Assembly (NCBI RefSeq): GCF_010093345.1
Contig: NZ_PDWT01000002.1
Location: 248,001 to 312,000 of the forward strand
Source: Pseudoxanthomonas yeongjuensis
GTDB taxonomy: Bacteria > Pseudomonadota > Gammaproteobacteria > Xanthomonadales > Xanthomonadaceae
Direction of reading: 5' to 3'
DNA length: 64,000 bases
Part shown: positions 6,095 to 31,818 of the stretch, piece by piece
Position numbering within the stretch: the stretch's first letter is position 1
Layout: every line of letters begins with the position of its first letter
Translations under genes and position numbers: made by a program
The notes under the pieces: model-generated
Told to the model about the DNA's origin: nothing
The model's input: the letters and a program-made list of their open reading frames with translations, nothing else
The model's database searches: none

Positions 6095-6745
6095 ATGCTT
6101 AAAGAACACATCAAGGTGCGCCTTGCGCTTGTCGCGCTGGCAATGCTTGTCGTAACGGGTTGTCAGCAGCAACCTCAACAACCGCAGCAAGCAAGCGACC
6201 CCGCCGCAAAGGAGCAGAGTGAAATGAGAACCGCAGTCCCTTTGGTGCGGCGTCTGGATCCGAATGAAACCGGGCCCATCGAGCTGGAGTTCGATGTTCC
6301 TGCACAGCCGGACGATGACGCGCCGCCAGTTTTCATAGGCGTACGGGTGACGGGCGATGATTCCACTGCGGTTTTCGATGCGGCTGATCGGTTGAGGCGC
6401 GCCGACATCTCGGCAGAAGTGCGTCTTTACCGCGTCCAGGAATCGGGTCCGGTTGAGGTAGGGCTGCAACGCAGCCAGCGCGTCGGACGAGGCGAAGAAG
6501 AACCGGTGGCGCTCTCCGCCGATGGCCTGGCCCCCCGATTATTCGCCTTCAATGCCGACTTCAGCACGATGCAAGCGGCGGGTTTGCTTTCCGAGGGTGC
6601 CGCATACCGGGAGCTGGCATTTGCCTATACGCCCAGTATCCCGGCGGGCCGCTATCGGGTTGCGATTCGTTTTGGCCAGAACCGCGAGGCATTGCGTGCC
6701 GAAGAAGCGGAGCTTCTGGTCGCCTACACCGCGAAAGGAAAATAG
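6095..6745 (+). CDS. Lipoprotein, candidate immunity protein for the XVIPCD effector
   Basis: 216 residues with a lipoprotein signal peptide ending in the lipobox VVTGC (Cys23) and a Gln/Pro-rich spacer. The mature part is a beta-rich domain (IELEFDVPAQ, PPVFIGVRVTG, RYRVAIRFGQNRE). I place it by context: it lies 12 bases upstream of an XVIPCD effector, and Xanthomonadales T4SS effectors are typically paired with periplasmic, often lipidated, immunity proteins. A periplasmic lipoprotein fits a toxin acting on the envelope. It may belong to one of the DUF families seen beside such effectors, but I cannot name which. Confidence 0.75.
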   Translation: MLKEHIKVRLALVALAMLVVTGCQQQPQQPQQASDPAAKEQSEMRTAVPLVRRLDPNETGPIELEFDVPAQPDDDAPPVFIGVRVTGDDSTAVFDAADRLRRADISAEVRLYRVQESGPVEVGLQRSQRVGRGEEEPVALSADGLAPRLFAFNADFSTMQAAGLLSEGAAYRELAFAYTPSIPAGRYRVAIRFGQNREALRAEEAELLVAYTAKGK

Positions 6746-6757
6746 GAGCGCGACAAC

Positions 6758-7732
6758 ATGGACCCGCAAGACAAGCATTACACCGTCACGATTTATGTGG
6801 CCGCACCCGGAACCCCATTGACGATATCCAAGGGCACCTCCGACGCTGGCCACGTCTACTACTCGGTCGATGATGGACAGATGGTGGATAGCTACGGTTT
6901 CGCTCCCGCCAAGCATGGCGAATCGAGCGGCCCAGGCAAGGTGTACGAGCATGACGTCACGGACTACAAGGATCCGTATTATTCCCGGACCCTGGAGATC
7001 ACCAAGGCGCAGTACGACAAGCTGCGGGAATTCGGTGGGAAACCAGATGAGCATGGGTTCGACATGGAGTATCGCGGCGCCGTCAACAGCTGCATCGATT
7101 ACACCTGGGGTGCGTTGAACCATGCCGGCTTGCATCGGCATACTTTGCTTGGCAAGGACAAGGATTACGACGGCGCGCTGAAGCCGCTGGACAACGTCCG
7201 GGACATCAAGAGCATCGAGGCGCCCTTCCCCAAGAGCGAGCTCAACCAGGAACGGCAGAACAAGATGCCGGAGCGCACGCCGCTGCAATGGCTGATCTCG
7301 GAACAGGAGCAGGCCGCGCCGGAGGGTCCGGCCCGCGGCCACGCGAGCACCGGCCCTCGGGATCCGCTGATCCCACAGGCCGAGGCGGCCGTACGCCGCC
7401 TGGACGCACACCAATACGACGACCAAAGCGCTTGCATGGCCGCCAGTGCCGCCTGCCTTGCCAAGGCGAACGGCCTCTCGCGGATCGACCATATCTTCCT
7501 AAGCGAGGCTCGCGGTTCGACCCAGAAAGGAGAGAACCTGTTTGTCGTGCAAGGTGCTCCGGGCGATCCGGCGCATCTCAGGGCGCAGATGAAAACGCAG
7601 GACGCGATCGACATGCCTGTCGAAAAATCGCTGGGGCAGCTGCAGGCGCTGAACGAAATGCCGCAACCGCAACAATCCCTGCAAATGGACGAAGCCATAC
7701 GGCAAACGGGCCCACAGGTGCGAATGAGTTGA
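6758..7732 (+). CDS. XVIPCD-tailed T4SS effector with N-terminal Cys/His hydrolase-like domain
   Basis: 324 residues; AGGAG lies well placed before the ATG. Residues ~195-305 match the XVIPCD, the C-terminal signal recognised by VirD4 of Xanthomonadales antibacterial T4SSs: DPLIPQAEAAVRRLDA, MAASAACLAKANGLSRIDHI, then ENLFVVQGAPGDPAHLRA and a Gln-rich end. The N-terminal ~130 residues carry GHVYYSV (His32) and NSCIDYTWGALNHAGL (Cys112), resembling permuted NlpC/P60-like peptidoglycan peptidases or amidases. Expected role: a toxin injected into rival bacteria, with the lipoprotein upstream as immunity. No T4SS structural genes are in the window, so it would be an orphan effector locus. The domain assignment is by motif recognition only. 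Confidence 0.85.
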   Translation: MDPQDKHYTVTIYVAAPGTPLTISKGTSDAGHVYYSVDDGQMVDSYGFAPAKHGESSGPGKVYEHDVTDYKDPYYSRTLEITKAQYDKLREFGGKPDEHGFDMEYRGAVNSCIDYTWGALNHAGLHRHTLLGKDKDYDGALKPLDNVRDIKSIEAPFPKSELNQERQNKMPERTPLQWLISEQEQAAPEGPARGHASTGPRDPLIPQAEAAVRRLDAHQYDDQSACMAASAACLAKANGLSRIDHIFLSEARGSTQKGENLFVVQGAPGDPAHLRAQMKTQDAIDMPVEKSLGQLQALNEMPQPQQSLQMDEAIRQTGPQVRMS

Positions 7733-7791
7733 CCAGGGCGGCAGGCGCCTGAGCCGCCCCGTTGCAATACGAAATCCATTGCAAGGAATGC

Positions 7792-7854
7792 AAACCAAAG
7801 GGGCCAGAGGGAATATCCGCTTAGAGCCGATATTTCCTCTGGCCCCTTTGGTTT
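7792..7854. repeat. Long palindrome family D, copy 2
   Basis: Arms of about 25 bases (aaaccaaaggggccagaggg, then aatat) with one mismatch, centre CCGCTTAGAGCCG. Same family as 4353-4413 and 12337-12389. It directly follows the effector gene and could end its transcript. Confidence 0.8.
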
Positions 7855-7970
7855 CGCTGACACCGCTTCCAAGGCAACTCGGTTGTCTTGAGCCGAAATG
7901 TTGCGGGTCCTGGACATTCGTATAACCTTTCAACTTCCCGCTATCCACATTGCGACCGAGGAAATTGTTG

Positions 7971-8948
7971 ATGAGCCTACCGAGGATTGCGGCGTGCCTG
8001 CTCGCGTTGCTGACGACCGGCGCGGCTGGCGCGGCGCCGACCGAGTACGTCAGCTATGCCGCAGACTTCGATCAGTTCGAGGCACGGACCAGGGACATGC
8101 CGGCGGAGGCACGGGTCGCGGCATTCCGTCGGGAGTTCGATCGGATCCGCCCCGGCCTCTACGCCGACAGCAATCCACAGCGTCTCGATCGACGGATCCT
8201 GCGGTCCCTCGAGGAATTCCCGGCGCTTCGGCCTGCGTTCCGCTCCGTGGAGCAACGCTTCGGCGAGGCCCTTTCCGAGGCCGAAGCGCATTTCCGGACC
8301 CTCTTTCCGGATTTCTCCTCGCCGCTGCCGATCATCCTGGCCCATGAGCTTGGCGTGCGGGATGGCGGATCCGATTTCGTGGCGGGACGCAAGGTCATGC
8401 TGTTCGGCGCCGACATGATCGCCAAATTGCACAATGACGATTCCCTACGGCCCTTTCTCGAACACGAGCTGTTCCATCTCGAGCATGCGAGGCACTTCGC
8501 CGACTGCGAGCAATTCTGGTGCTTGCTGTGGCAAGAAGGTCTTGCCACTTACGCAGCCTCGACGATGACCGCCGGGGCGAGCGATCACCAGCTCTTGCTC
8601 GATCAGCCACGCCCCGTCCGTGGACCGACCGACCAGCACTGGAAGGAGGCGCTGTGCACGGTTGCGACGCAATTCGACGGCACCGACGAAGCGGCGGCCG
8701 GCGCCGCGTTCACCGGTGCGCAGAATGCCTCCGACCTGCCTCCTCGTTTCGGTTATTACGTGGGACTCCGTGTCGCGGCCGAGGCCGCCCGGCAGCGGAG
8801 CCTGCCTGCATTGGCCCGGCTCGACAACGAACATGCGCATGCCGTCGTCGCCGATGCGCTTTCGGCGCTGCTCGCAGAGGCAGGCGCTTCGTGCCCTGGC
8901 CCGGCGGCGATTGTTCCCGTGACCCGAAGCGCTTCCCGACCGATGTGA
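7971..8948 (+). CDS. Exported HExxH protein, putative zinc metalloprotease
   Basis: 325 residues from the ATG at 7971, chosen over a TTG at 7950 because GAGGA lies at good spacing and the protein then starts with a clean signal peptide (MSLPRIAACLLALLTTGAAG). The zinc motif LEHELFHLEH (HExxH) is followed ~30 residues later by WQEGLATYAA, whose Glu is a good third ligand, as in gluzincins. The layout resembles predicted Zn-dependent proteases of the DUF2268 type. It ends 7 bases before hydrolase copy 2, so the two may be cotranscribed. Substrate unknown. Confidence 0.75.
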   Translation: MSLPRIAACLLALLTTGAAGAAPTEYVSYAADFDQFEARTRDMPAEARVAAFRREFDRIRPGLYADSNPQRLDRRILRSLEEFPALRPAFRSVEQRFGEALSEAEAHFRTLFPDFSSPLPIILAHELGVRDGGSDFVAGRKVMLFGADMIAKLHNDDSLRPFLEHELFHLEHARHFADCEQFWCLLWQEGLATYAASTMTAGASDHQLLLDQPRPVRGPTDQHWKEALCTVATQFDGTDEAAAGAAFTGAQNASDLPPRFGYYVGLRVAAEAARQRSLPALARLDNEHAHAVVADALSALLAEAGASCPGPAAIVPVTRSASRPM

Positions 8949-29049: not shown

Positions 29050-31566
29050 CTAGGCGCCAGGCGCGCGGACCGGGTCGTCGCGCAGTTCGCCCAGTGGCGG
29101 GATGACGAGCGTGGTGTATTCCTGGTAATGCGCCGCGGGCAGGTCGCGCAGGGCAAGGCGGTCGATGCGCGGGGTCTCGATCGGCAGTCGCGCCGCTTCG
29201 TAGAGGATCACCTCGTGCCCGGGCGGGTACCAGCGCAGCAGCTTGTCGACCAGCGCCTGCACGCCTTCGCGTTCCGCGTGCAGGCGGGTACAGGACAGGT
29301 CGCCCGACAGCGCCCCCTGCCACAACAGCACAAGACCGGCGGTGTCGGGCTGGCGGTCGTAGACGAGGAAATGGGTCGCCTCCATCGACTGCACGCCGCG
29401 ATGGCCCGGATCCATGCCCAGGTCGGCGTACAGGCAGGCTTCGGCCGAAATCCCCGGTTCCATGCGCGCCGGGATGCCTTCGGCGCGGGCCTGGCGTACC
29501 ACCTGGTGCGGCACGTCGGCGAACACACCGGGGTGGCCGTAGAACACCGCGCAGACCTGCTTGCCGGCGCGGACCTCGGCCATGATCGCCGCGTCGATCT
29601 CGCGATAGGTCCGGCGCCGATCCTTGCCGGGGGCGTAATGGGCGCCGAGATTGATCACATCGGGGCGCAGGCCATGGATCATCGCCAGCGCGAACGGGTC
29701 GGCCAGGCAGAACACGACCTGGGCCTCGCGGATTTCCGACAGGCAGCGTTCGCTGGCGTGGCGGCCGAACTGGATGCCGCTGCCCACCACCACCAGGCCC
29801 GCCGACGGCGTCGATGCGACGGCGACATCGCTCGCGCGGACCACGCGGTTCCGACCTTCGTCCTTGGCCCGGTACAGGGCCTGGTCCGCCTCGTGGATCA
29901 ATTGTTCCAGCGTGGCGGCCTGCCCCTCGGCCTGGCAGACCCCGGAGCTGATGTTGAAGCCGAACGTGTGCCCGAACACGGTGATCGGTTCGATCCGCTC
30001 GCGCAGGCGTTGCAGCATCGCCCCGGCTTCCGCCGCGTCGGCCTCGAGCAGGATCGTGAACTCGTCGCCGCCGCTGCGCCCGGCGATACCGCGCCCGCCG
30101 ACCACTTCGCTGATCCACGCGCCGAGGGAGCGCAGCGCCTCATCGCCGGCGGCGTGGCCGTGGCGGTCGTTGACCTGCTTGAACAGGTCGATGTCGGTGA
30201 CGACCGCGGTGAACGGCCGCCCGTTGGCGCGGGTGCGTGCGAACGCCGCCGCGCCGAGCTTGCGCACCTGCTGGTAGTTGAGCAGGCGGGTCAGGCTGTC
30301 GTGCTCGGACAGCCAGCGGTAGCGGCGGCGATCGCGGAACGTACGGCGCAGCAGGACCGACAGCAGGATGGCGGTGACCAGCAATCCGGCCATGCCGATG
30401 GCCAGCATCAGTTGCCGGCGCTTGTTCGCGGTGACCTGCACCGCGGCCAGTGCCTTCTCGGTTTCGAGCAGGGCGATCTGCTGCTCCTTCAACCGGGTGT
30501 CGAACTGGACCTGCTGGTAGGCCAGCCGACGCTCGCGGGAGACGACCTCGAGCGCTTCCGACGCCGCCATCGCCTGCCGGGTGTGCGACAGCGCCGCGTC
30601 GATGTCGCCGCGTTTCTCGGCCAGTTTGGCGAGCAGGCGTTCGGTCTCGGCGATGGCCAGGTCCGATTTCTGTTCCCGGTAGTACCGGAGGGTGTCGACC
30701 AGCATCGCCTGGGCCTGATCGAGCTGCCGGTGGGAGGCGACCAGGCTTTCGGCGATGACCAGCCGGGCGCTGTACGCGCCGACCGCGAAGCCCACGGCCT
30801 TGAATTCGGTGAGCGCCTCGCTCGCCCACTTCAAGGCCTCGGCATGCCGTCCTTGCGCGGCCGCCATCTTGCCGACGCCGTACTTGCCGTTGGCGATGAA
30901 GATCGGATCGTGGGCACGGGCACAGGCATCGATCTGGCGATGGCGCCATTTCTCCGCCTCGCTGAAATGGCCCGCATGGTCCTCGGCCAGCGCCACGTCG
31001 CTCAGGGCCAGGCACAGCGCGCGCGGGTCGTCCTGCTTTTCGACGATCTGCAGGGCCTGCAGCGCCAGTTCCCGCGCCCGCCCGGTCTCGCCGACCAGCG
31101 TATGCAGATAGCTGGCGGCACCGAGCAGCCTGGCCGCTTCCGCGGGGGACTCGTGCAGGTACTTCAGGCCCTCGTTGAGCCAGGCGAACGCCAGCGCCCA
31201 GTTCTCGAGGTTGGCGGCCACGCCGGTGGCCGTGGTGTAGACGCGCACCCGCAACGGCGCCGGCAGGTCCTGCTTCAGCAGCTCGGTAAAGCCCTTCAGC
31301 GCCGCGGGCTGGTCACCGGCCAGGGCGCGGTTGCGCAGGCGGACGTAATCGAGGCGGTGCCGCTGCAGCGGCGTGAGTGCATCGAGCCGCGGCCCCAGGG
31401 CGCTGATCTTTGCGTCCGATTGGCTCCAGTGCGCGGTGACCGCGAGCCGCTCGATCTCCTGGACCTGCGCCTCCAGCGCCGTGGCGTCCGCAGGCGACTG
31501 GGCCGCTGCAGCCGGCGCGCAGGCGAACGCAAGCGACAGCAATGCGATCGCGACCAGCCGGAACAT
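29050..31566 (-). CDS. TPR-GGDEF diguanylate cyclase fused to a borosin-type alpha-N-methyltransferase
   Basis: 838 residues from the ATG at 31566 (a TTG at 31572 adds two). In order: signal peptide 1-22, periplasmic TPR-like helices ~80-340, membrane segment ~386-406, GGDEF domain ~416-578 with intact GGDEF at 499-503 and no RxxD inhibitory site, a ~12-residue linker, then a tetrapyrrole-methylase-fold domain ~590-833. That last domain matches the borosin methyltransferases: GSGI at 595, FYGHPGVF at 675-682, MEPGISAEACLYADLGMDP, EATHFL and LLWQGALSG. Tyr644, Arg650 and Tyr654 line up with the catalytic Tyr/Arg/Tyr I remember in omphalotin methyltransferase. It should methylate backbone amides of the peptide encoded just upstream (31600-31818), possibly under c-di-GMP or TPR control. 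The linkage is inferred; the reading frame is continuous. Confidence 0.88.
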   Translation of the reverse strand: MFRLVAIALLSLAFACAPAAAAQSPADATALEAQVQEIERLAVTAHWSQSDAKISALGPRLDALTPLQRHRLDYVRLRNRALAGDQPAALKGFTELLKQDLPAPLRVRVYTTATGVAANLENWALAFAWLNEGLKYLHESPAEAARLLGAASYLHTLVGETGRARELALQALQIVEKQDDPRALCLALSDVALAEDHAGHFSEAEKWRHRQIDACARAHDPIFIANGKYGVGKMAAAQGRHAEALKWASEALTEFKAVGFAVGAYSARLVIAESLVASHRQLDQAQAMLVDTLRYYREQKSDLAIAETERLLAKLAEKRGDIDAALSHTRQAMAASEALEVVSRERRLAYQQVQFDTRLKEQQIALLETEKALAAVQVTANKRRQLMLAIGMAGLLVTAILLSVLLRRTFRDRRRYRWLSEHDSLTRLLNYQQVRKLGAAAFARTRANGRPFTAVVTDIDLFKQVNDRHGHAAGDEALRSLGAWISEVVGGRGIAGRSGGDEFTILLEADAAEAGAMLQRLRERIEPITVFGHTFGFNISSGVCQAEGQAATLEQLIHEADQALYRAKDEGRNRVVRASDVAVASTPSAGLVVVGSGIQFGRHASERCLSEIREAQVVFCLADPFALAMIHGLRPDVINLGAHYAPGKDRRRTYREIDAAIMAEVRAGKQVCAVFYGHPGVFADVPHQVVRQARAEGIPARMEPGISAEACLYADLGMDPGHRGVQSMEATHFLVYDRQPDTAGLVLLWQGALSGDLSCTRLHAEREGVQALVDKLLRWYPPGHEVILYEAARLPIETPRIDRLALRDLPAAHYQEYTTLVIPPLGELRDDPVRAPGA

Positions 31567-31599
31567 AGGCAAGCGTCTGGCGATGAACGTCGTCGACGG

Positions 31600-31818
31600 T
31601 TACTTGTCGTAGGCCTTGATGGTGTGGTTGGTGGCGTACTGCCCGTCCGCCAGCCCGGTCAGTTTCCCGACGGCCGCGTAATCGCTCTCCAGCATCGCCC
31701 TGCGCTCCTCGTCGGTCACCCCGGCGCGATGCAGCACCGCTTCCGGATCCTTCCCGTATTCCGCGGCCAGCGCCGCGTCGCTTCCGAGCTTCTTCATCAG
31801 ATCGAGCAGTTTCGACAT
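31600..31818 (-). CDS. Split-borosin precursor peptide
   Basis: 72 residues; AAGGGAGA precedes the ATG at 31818. The helical N-terminal part (LLDLMKKLGSDAALAAEYGK, DPEAVLHRAGVTDEERRAML, then VGKLTG) matches the borosin-binding domain of SonA from Shewanella oneidensis as I recall it (LxxLGxDAxL, xPEAVxxxxGLTDEx). The C-terminal tail YATNHTIKAYDK is the expected place of N-methylation, most likely around Thr66-Ala69. It lies 33 bases upstream of the methyltransferase fusion on the same strand, so both are one operon. There is no fused methyltransferase, which makes it a split (in trans) system. A longer frame from 32022 has no support. Confidence 0.88.
   Translation of the reverse strand: MSKLLDLMKKLGSDAALAAEYGKDPEAVLHRAGVTDEERRAMLESDYAAVGKLTGLADGQYATNHTIKAYDK

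What the first reader, a model, noticed from the sequence alone, without database searches (positions are those of the whole stretch)
29050..31818. Diguanylate cyclase fused to a borosin-type peptide N-methyltransferase, next to its peptide
One continuous reading frame joins signal peptide, TPRs, membrane helix, an intact GGDEF domain and a domain with the borosin methyltransferase signatures (FYGHPGVF, PGISAE, Tyr/Arg/Tyr catalytic set). The gene upstream encodes a peptide that looks like the split-borosin precursor SonA. I know of free-standing and precursor-fused borosin methyltransferases, but not of one carried on a c-di-GMP cyclase. It would place backbone N-methylation at the inner membrane under a signalling domain. 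That functional link is inference.
Basis: partly seen in the sequence, partly recalled or inferred. Interest (0 to 1): 0.95.

Follow-up and report, generated by a model that had tools for sequence, protein, structure and literature searches.

The report
Sensor cyclase fused to peptide methylator
One bacterial protein, predicted to sit in the membrane, joins a repeat domain that is likely a sensor, a domain predicted to make the messenger cyclic di-GMP, and a domain predicted to methylate the backbone of a small peptide encoded just upstream; in related bacteria such a peptide gene sits directly before 91 of 101 copies of this repeat domain, so the peptide is likely the signal it reads, which would give these methylated peptides a testable job.

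Summary
Observation confirmed. One frame (29050-31572, minus strand) encodes TPR domain, transmembrane helix, intact GGDEF and a SonM-type borosin N-methyltransferase; the gene before it encodes a SonA-type precursor. The fusion is neither unique nor unprinted: 321 protein clusters match, 34 further loci show it, and a 2024 figure legend lists a GGDEF domain among borosin architectures. On a quick tree it arose once, among loci where the two genes abut.

Beyond the given coordinates: SonM-type split borosins keep company with one family of TPR proteins, likely membrane sensors. In 61 related genomes, 36 of 36 with the methyltransferase have it and 0 of 25 without do. A precursor gene lies directly before 91 of 101. 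The output domain can change: usually GGDEF, a hybrid histidine kinase in 3 loci. More distant borosin methyltransferases lack it (6 of 9 in a class-wide sample). The predicted fold matches best, in Foldseek, a Rap quorum-sensing receptor bound to its peptide, though TPR folds are generic.

Best reading (inferred, 0.45): the methylated peptide is the sensor's ligand, and here the signal's maker is fused to its receptor. Nothing biochemical is shown; three key papers could not be read.

The parts
31600..31818 (-). precursor peptide gene, 72 aa, SonA type
   Evidence: phmmer to SonA 7ltc_B E 4.7e-7; homologous precursors at the same place in related loci
31654..31818 (-). borosin-binding domain (leader) of the precursor, about residues 1-55
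   Evidence: aligned to SonA residues 1-57
31603..31638 (-). C-terminal tail YATNHTIKAYDK, predicted core; by alignment H65 and I67 correspond to SonA L63 and I65 (weak, gapped alignment)
   Evidence: methylated SonA residues from PMC8429565
29050..31566 (-). fused TPR-TM-GGDEF-methyltransferase gene, 838 aa from the ATG (frame open to a TTG at 31572)
31501..31566 (-). predicted signal peptide (residues 3-24 in P0001 numbering)
   Evidence: read from the sequence; not run through a dedicated predictor
30418..31503 (-). TPR domain, likely sensor, residues 24-385, with invariant C187 and C217
   Evidence: AlphaFold2 pLDDT 96.3; both Cys invariant in 50 of 50 and 48 of 48 aligned rows
30349..30411 (-). 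transmembrane helix, residues 388-408, within one continuous predicted helix 324-423
   Evidence: read from the sequence; hydropathy in relatives; AlphaFold2 secondary structure
29845..30306 (-). GGDEF domain, residues 423-576, catalytic motifs intact, inhibitory I-site RxxD absent
29083..29799 (-). borosin alpha-N-methyltransferase domain, residues 592-830, SonM type

Best explanation
The gene encodes one protein that joins a TPR domain (likely a periplasmic sensor), a predicted transmembrane helix, an intact GGDEF domain (predicted diguanylate cyclase) and a SonM-type borosin methyltransferase domain, and it likely methylates the backbone of the SonA-like peptide encoded just upstream and then reads that peptide, or its processed form, with its own TPR domain. 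Shown by sequence: the fusion, the catalytic residues, the precursor, the dedicated pairing of TPR protein and methyltransferase in related genomes, the precursor directly before the TPR gene, and the exchange of the output domain (GGDEF or hybrid histidine kinase). Inferred: methylation in the cytoplasm by the fused domain; release of the tail by a general protease and passage to the periplasm (no dedicated protease or exporter gene was found conserved nearby); binding in the TPR superhelix; a signal down the continuous helix 324-423 to the GGDEF dimer; more or less c-di-GMP. The fusion would tie the maker of the signal to its receptor.
For: Methyltransferase and precursor are clear SonM and SonA relatives, with the four catalytic residues in 100 of 102 methyltransferases. 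The TPR domain is one homologous family: 101 proteins in 89 loci score above 100 bits with one profile. Co-occurrence in 61 related genomes: 36 of 36 methyltransferase-positive genomes have it and 0 of 25 negative ones do; 38 of 39 methyltransferases lie within 5 kb of one and 44 of 45 TPR genes by a methyltransferase. In an even sample of 369 genomes of the class, the only 3 with the TPR domain at 1e-30 are among the 10 with the methyltransferase at 1e-20. A precursor lies directly before 91 of 101 TPR genes (89 by script, 2 by inspection) against 2 of 555 other long frames, both stray frames that overlap the same loci. In five tandem loci each of two TPR genes has its own precursor, and in Dokdonella L047 one of the two methyltransferase copies has lost a catalytic Tyr. 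Output exchange: histidine kinase with receiver domain in L075 (twice), L122 and L124. Best Foldseek hits are Rap bound to CSF peptide (4gyo, E 9.2e-9, TM 0.59) and further Rap and NprR receptors among other TPRs. I had noted the peptide-receptor idea before that search. The single fusion on the tree lies within the lineage where the two genes abut.
Against: No binding, methylation or cyclase activity is measured anywhere. TPR superhelices look alike: LGN is close behind in Foldseek, and APPBP2 and APC/C subunits rank above Rap in the second aligner. The inner (A) helices are hardly more conserved than the outer (B) ones, 1.58 against 1.50 bits, so there is no sign of a conserved groove. Covariation of precursor with TPR, after removing the other domains, is weak and not consistent: 0.32 over all 72 loci (with GGDEF -0.09, with methyltransferase 0.22), but 0.10, 0.14 and 0.15 in the 29 fused loci, none significant, and in the 29 'downstream' loci GGDEF is the strongest at 0.25. 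The periplasmic place rests on crude hydropathy: an N-terminal hydrophobic stretch was found in 64 of 100 and a TM helix behind the TPR in 88 of 100 proteins, in only 1 of the 4 kinases (the rule fails where the TPR hit is overlong). No conserved exporter or protease was found nearby, yet the precursor has no evident signal peptide. In 7 of 12 loci with two TPR genes only one has a detectable precursor. Outside the SonM-like branch the association fades: of 9 other methyltransferase genomes in the class sample, 2 have the GGDEF partner, 1 only the kinase form and 6 neither. Weaker TPR hits (1e-15 to 1e-25) occur in 6 of the 25 methyltransferase-less genomes. In the fused clade the tail is nearly constant, which suits one shared signal better than private ones.
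Confidence: 0.45

Rival explanations
1. Cytoplasmic coupling: the precursor works as a regulatory subunit on the cytoplasmic side. Binding of precursor to the methyltransferase dimer, or its methylation, changes the pairing of the attached GGDEF domains, while the TPR domain senses another cue.
For: SonM is active as a homodimer and binds the leader of its precursor with a Ki of about 4 uM (PMC8429565); GGDEF domains also act as dimers (general knowledge); in the fusion the two are joined by about 15 residues; no exporter was found nearby.
Against: In most unfused relatives examined the methyltransferase is a separate protein beside the GGDEF gene, and in three loci a histidine kinase is present, so a specific GGDEF-methyltransferase contact is not general. 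It leaves the precursor-before-TPR order unexplained.
Confidence: 0.25
2. Regulated natural product: the TPR protein reads an unrelated envelope signal and its output controls when the N-methylated peptide, an effector such as a toxin to rivals or a metal binder, is made or used.
For: Omphalotin A, a fungal borosin, is nematocidal (PMC11285071 passage); sensor-effector operons are common (general knowledge).
Against: No exporter, protease or immunity gene stood out as conserved near the module. A sensor for another cue need not be confined to borosin genomes nor stand directly behind a precursor so often. The tail is nearly constant in the fused clade, unusual for a weapon.
Confidence: 0.22
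3. Neutral fusion: two neighbouring operon genes were joined once, for instance by loss of a stop codon, and the joined protein works as the two separate ones did, with no new control.
For: One fusion event on the quick tree (support 78), inside the lineage with abutting or overlapping genes; the linker is the least conserved part (41% mean identity).
Against: It says nothing about why TPR protein, precursor and methyltransferase belong together; the fusion is kept across Pseudoxanthomonas, Luteimonas, Thermomonas, Dokdonella and Rubrivivax.
Confidence: 0.08

Closest known systems
SonM/SonA, type IV split borosin of Shewanella oneidensis (PMC8429565)
   Same: homologous methyltransferase with the same catalytic residues; separate SonA-like precursor with borosin-binding domain beside it
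   Different: SonM is a free 263-aa enzyme; here it is the C-terminal domain of a TPR-GGDEF protein. All 7 Shewanella loci in my set have a TPR-GGDEF gene directly after the precursor (in L110 and L116 it is broken into two frames). GGDEF and diguanylate do not occur in that paper's held text
Borosin architecture with a GGDEF domain in Xu et al. 2024, Figure 1 legend (PMC11395268)
   Same: a GGDEF domain is listed among borosin architectures, so this fusion is very probably that type
   Different: GGDEF occurs only in the legend (2 occurrences); the figure was not seen; TPR and tetratricopeptide do not occur in the text
RRNPP peptide receptors of Gram-positive bacteria (Rap, NprR)
   Same: TPR superhelix of like size, best Foldseek hits; peptide gene next to receptor gene (recalled for Rap/Phr)
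   Different: those are cytoplasmic and read imported peptides (PMC3601965, abstract in a listing); this domain is predicted to be periplasmic and membrane-tethered, has an invariant Cys pair and a GGDEF or kinase output
RpfR/RpfF of Burkholderia (PMC6361424, abstract read)
   Same: a receptor that affects c-di-GMP also holds the synthase of its signal
   Different: fatty-acid signal, PAS receptor, synthase bound and inhibited rather than fused; no sequence relation was tested or is claimed

Membership tests
type IV (split) borosin | alpha-N-methyltransferase homologous to SonM/OphMA | tested here: met
   E 1.9e-68 to SonM, about 6e-38 to OphMA
type IV (split) borosin | catalytic Y58, R67, Y71, Y93 of SonM | tested here: met
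   Y646, R652, Y656, Y678; 100 of 102 methyltransferases, window included, have all four
type IV (split) borosin | separately encoded precursor with borosin-binding domain | tested here: met
   31600-31818, SonA E 4.7e-7
type IV (split) borosin | free-standing methyltransferase of about 263 aa | tested here: not met
   it is a domain of an 838-840 aa protein
type IV (split) borosin | backbone N-methylation of the precursor | not testable with these tools
   needs mass spectrometry
diguanylate cyclase (GGDEF) | GGDEF motif and substrate and metal motifs intact | tested here: met
   motifs invariant, or with one deviating row, in 121 aligned fused proteins
diguanylate cyclase (GGDEF) | inhibitory I-site RxxD (optional) | tested here: not met
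   0 of 34 fused proteins; 32 of 62 unfused by pattern, a lower bound
diguanylate cyclase (GGDEF) | makes c-di-GMP | not testable with these tools
   needs an assay
RRNPP receptor | TPR superhelix like Rap/NprR | tested here: inconclusive
   best Foldseek hits, but generic TPRs score alike or better
RRNPP receptor | soluble receptor with phosphatase-type or DNA-binding effector part | tested here: not met
   effector parts are GGDEF or histidine kinase; a TM helix is predicted
RRNPP receptor | peptide gene adjacent to receptor gene | tested here: met
   91 of 101 TPR genes
RRNPP receptor | binds the peptide | not testable with these tools
   needs binding assay

The most novel reading that the evidence does not exclude
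Gram-negative bacteria use backbone N-methylated ribosomal peptides as signals for a dedicated family of periplasmic, Rap-like TPR receptors whose output can be exchanged (c-di-GMP cyclase or hybrid histidine kinase); in Pseudoxanthomonas, Luteimonas and kin the enzyme that makes the signal has been fused to the receptor that reads it.
Probability: 0.35. Interest if true: 0.93.

Novelty: new variant of a known kind. Interest (0 to 1): 0.72.

Why it matters
What the bacterial split borosins are for is open: in 2021 the discoverers wrote that none of the pathways was yet tied to a final natural product (PMC8429565); I recall a later report of one bacterial borosin product, not checked here. The TPR family described here ties the SonM-type loci of the related genomes to signal transduction and names a likely receptor, which makes the question directly testable in a laboratory strain such as Shewanella oneidensis. 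If right, it adds a class of modified peptide signals and receptors in bacteria where, to my knowledge, peptide pheromones are rare.

Tried and rejected
Chance or assembly artefact: rejected, since the fusion recurs in 34 loci and 321 clusters.

Tetrapyrrole methylase of vitamin B12 type: rejected; hits to such enzymes are at best E 0.001 against 1.9e-68 for SonM.

c-di-GMP as a direct and necessary control of the methyltransferase: disfavoured because unfused and histidine kinase forms exist.

Conserved ligand groove in the TPR domain: looked for, not found. Covariation of precursor and TPR: the first run used wrong GGDEF slices and is discarded; the corrected run is mixed and I count it as inconclusive. 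Tandem pairs: TPR diverges more than output and tail more than leader in 5 of 5, in two cases by a few per cent only (L100 for the tail, L133 for the TPR), and that is also the general trend, so weak.

Other conserved neighbours: of the 14 largest clusters shown, the largest outside the module has 13 of 99 loci, all of the 'downstream' kind, and looks like a GNAT acetyltransferase. Seven or eight loci of the Rheinheimera kind share genes that look like LepA, a signal peptidase and Era, which is probably lineage synteny (these names are my reading of the sequences, recalled, not a search). Search for more histidine kinase forms: only the query's own protein returned. Promoter and terminator scan: nothing. 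Full-length AlphaFold2 model: domain arrangement uncertain (pTM 0.47, mean pLDDT 80.7), used for the continuous helix only.

Cut-offs: the 1e-40 limits were set after seeing the lists; there is a gap from 3.5e-44 to 9.5e-25 for the TPR domain and from 2.4e-50 to 3.9e-6 for the methyltransferase. The weaker hits (19 and 22 rows) were dropped before the count; the 19 TPR rows include 6 genomes without methyltransferase. L130 was dropped (no methyltransferase at 1e-15). Two TPR hits of 103 (L073, second frame of L064) were under 100 bits and left out of the 101. 'Directly before' means that the precursor frame ends within about 600 bases inside to 400 bases before the opening of the TPR frame; L046 and L081 were added by inspection. 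The 80 loci are the best of at least 543 and lean towards the query; 11 of the 20 whole-genome stretches were chosen by me from the relatives. Genomes and loci are related, so counts are not independent.
Full report
What is there. The minus-strand frame 29050-31572 encodes 840 aa from a TTG, or 838 from the ATG at 31566. In order: hydrophobic leader, TPR domain, TM helix, GGDEF, borosin methyltransferase. The precursor gene (31600-31818) ends 33 bases before the ATG. The methyltransferase part is a close SonM relative (E 1.9e-68) and the precursor a SonA relative (E 4.7e-7). The window's own genome has one full copy; 20 other places match the GGDEF part only, and the precursor has no second hit better than E 0.39. 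The genus is probably Pseudoxanthomonas: the same-genus genome G019 has its copy on a contig of 303966 bases, the length given for the contig of P0019, which its source names Pseudoxanthomonas gei.

How common the fusion is. A protein search limited to 462-1470 aa gave 321 clusters at E 1e-10 or better; 120 were listed, each with both Pfam domains, from Luteimonas, Pseudoxanthomonas and Rubrivivax among named sources. In 121 aligned fused proteins the GGDEF motifs are intact. The I-site is missing in 34 of 34 fused proteins, so feedback inhibition through it is not expected.

How it arose. In a tree of 102 methyltransferase domains (quick method, SH-aLRT only, several long branches) the fused ones need a single change, with support 78, and sit among loci where a TPR-GGDEF gene directly precedes a separate methyltransferase gene. 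In 16 of the 17 loci of that kind the methyltransferase frame opens before, or within 60 bases after, the end of the GGDEF frame (frame openings, not start codons). In 37 loci the GGDEF gene is downstream: in 36 (Shewanella, Rheinheimera, Dyella, Lysobacter and others) the methyltransferase comes first, then, where one was found, the precursor, then TPR-GGDEF; L122 has an order of its own.

The partner is a TPR family. Of 99 loci with a methyltransferase (80 from the scan, 19 of 20 taken from whole genomes), 89 have a same-strand GGDEF fused or within 3 kb. The other ten: L072 and L119 are cut by contig ends (L119 still shows the TPR part), L075 and L124 have a TPR histidine kinase instead, L118 (Kangiella) has two TPR-only neighbours, and L125-L129 are distant methyltransferases with neither TPR partner nor recognisable precursor. 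Pfam shows HisKA, HATPase_c and receiver domains behind the TPR in L075 (two proteins), L122 and L124. One profile recovers the TPR domain in 103 proteins (101 above 100 bits), and two cysteines (C187 and C217 here) are invariant in all 50 and all 48 aligned rows, as expected for a periplasmic disulfide (inference).

Exclusive pairing, and its limits. In 61 related genomes (36 besides the window's own from its genus, 24 from the order), TPR domain and methyltransferase occur in exactly the same 36 genomes; 38 of 39 methyltransferases and 44 of 45 TPR genes lie within 5 kb of the other (cut-off 1e-40, set afterwards). Exceptions: a methyltransferase in G044 without TPR partner and a TPR gene in G056 87 kb from one. 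Weaker TPR hits (1e-15 to 1e-25) occur in 6 of the 25 other genomes. In 369 genomes drawn evenly from the class, 10 have the methyltransferase at 1e-20 and 3 the TPR domain at 1e-30, all three among the ten (the TPR search scored at most 5 candidates per genome). Of the 9 besides the window's own, 2 have a GGDEF partner, 1 only the kinase form, 6 neither. So the TPR family goes with the SonM-like branch, not with all borosins.

Precursor before TPR gene. Whatever the place of the methyltransferase, the precursor is mostly the gene directly before the TPR gene: 91 of 101 (89 by script; L046 and L081 by inspection because the frames overlap or are long), against 2 of 555 other long frames, both stray frames at the same loci. 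Twelve loci have two TPR genes; in five each has its own precursor, in seven only one has a detectable one. In L047 one of two methyltransferase copies lacks the Tyr that matches SonM Y71, which fits a shared enzyme and private receptors (inference).

Mechanism and doubt. The order precursor-TPR gene, the pairing and the exchange of outputs are best explained if the peptide is what the TPR protein reads; about 0.45. Against it stand the missing exporter, topology known only from crude hydropathy, the lack of groove conservation and the mixed covariation. The fused form would hold the maker at its receptor, as RpfR holds the signal synthase RpfF in another system (PMC6361424, abstract).

What is known. 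Xu et al. 2024 (PMC11395268: passages, section 2.1, references and figure legends read) list a GGDEF domain in the legend of the borosin types. Miller et al. 2021 (PMC8429565: passages and sections 6 and 7 read) describe SonM/SonA with no occurrence of GGDEF or diguanylate. A 2024 review (PMC11285071, passages) credits types V-X to Cho et al. and Imani et al., which are not held, nor is Lee et al. 2024. Among held papers that contain both 'borosin' and 'GGDEF' only Xu et al. was listed. The other searches (listings only, some cut short: 12 of 16, 10 of 30 and 8 of 143 shown) listed no paper that by title or abstract joins borosins with TPR proteins or histidine kinases. So I claim the fusion as known in outline, and the TPR family as not found in what I could read.

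Noticed in passing
L047:3184-5793 and 6180-8792: Dokdonella MAG with two tandem precursor-fusion units; one methyltransferase copy has G in place of the Tyr that matches SonM Y71
   Followed up: partly
L122:4791-10793: Precursor, TPR hybrid histidine kinase, methyltransferase and TPR-GGDEF on one strand in a row (the source's name for the kinase's organism begins Natrono-)
   Followed up: partly
L064:6203-8774: In a Thermomonas MAG the TPR part and the GGDEF-methyltransferase part lie in two overlapping frames; real split or sequencing error not settled
   Followed up: no
L110:9124-10922 and L116:9050-10838: In two Shewanella records the TPR-GGDEF gene is broken into two overlapping frames
   Followed up: no
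L093-L100, L102, L103, L105, L106, L108, L109, L113, L120, L133-L137: Many precursors of this group have long Asp/Glu-rich tails after the binding domain, unlike the short tails of the fused clade
   Followed up: no
L096:8744-9292 and 12 other loci: A gene that looks like a GNAT acetyltransferase lies in 13 of 37 loci with the GGDEF gene downstream
   Followed up: no
L043:7522-8481: A partial second methyltransferase match downstream of the fused gene (Rhodanobacteraceae MAG)
   Followed up: no
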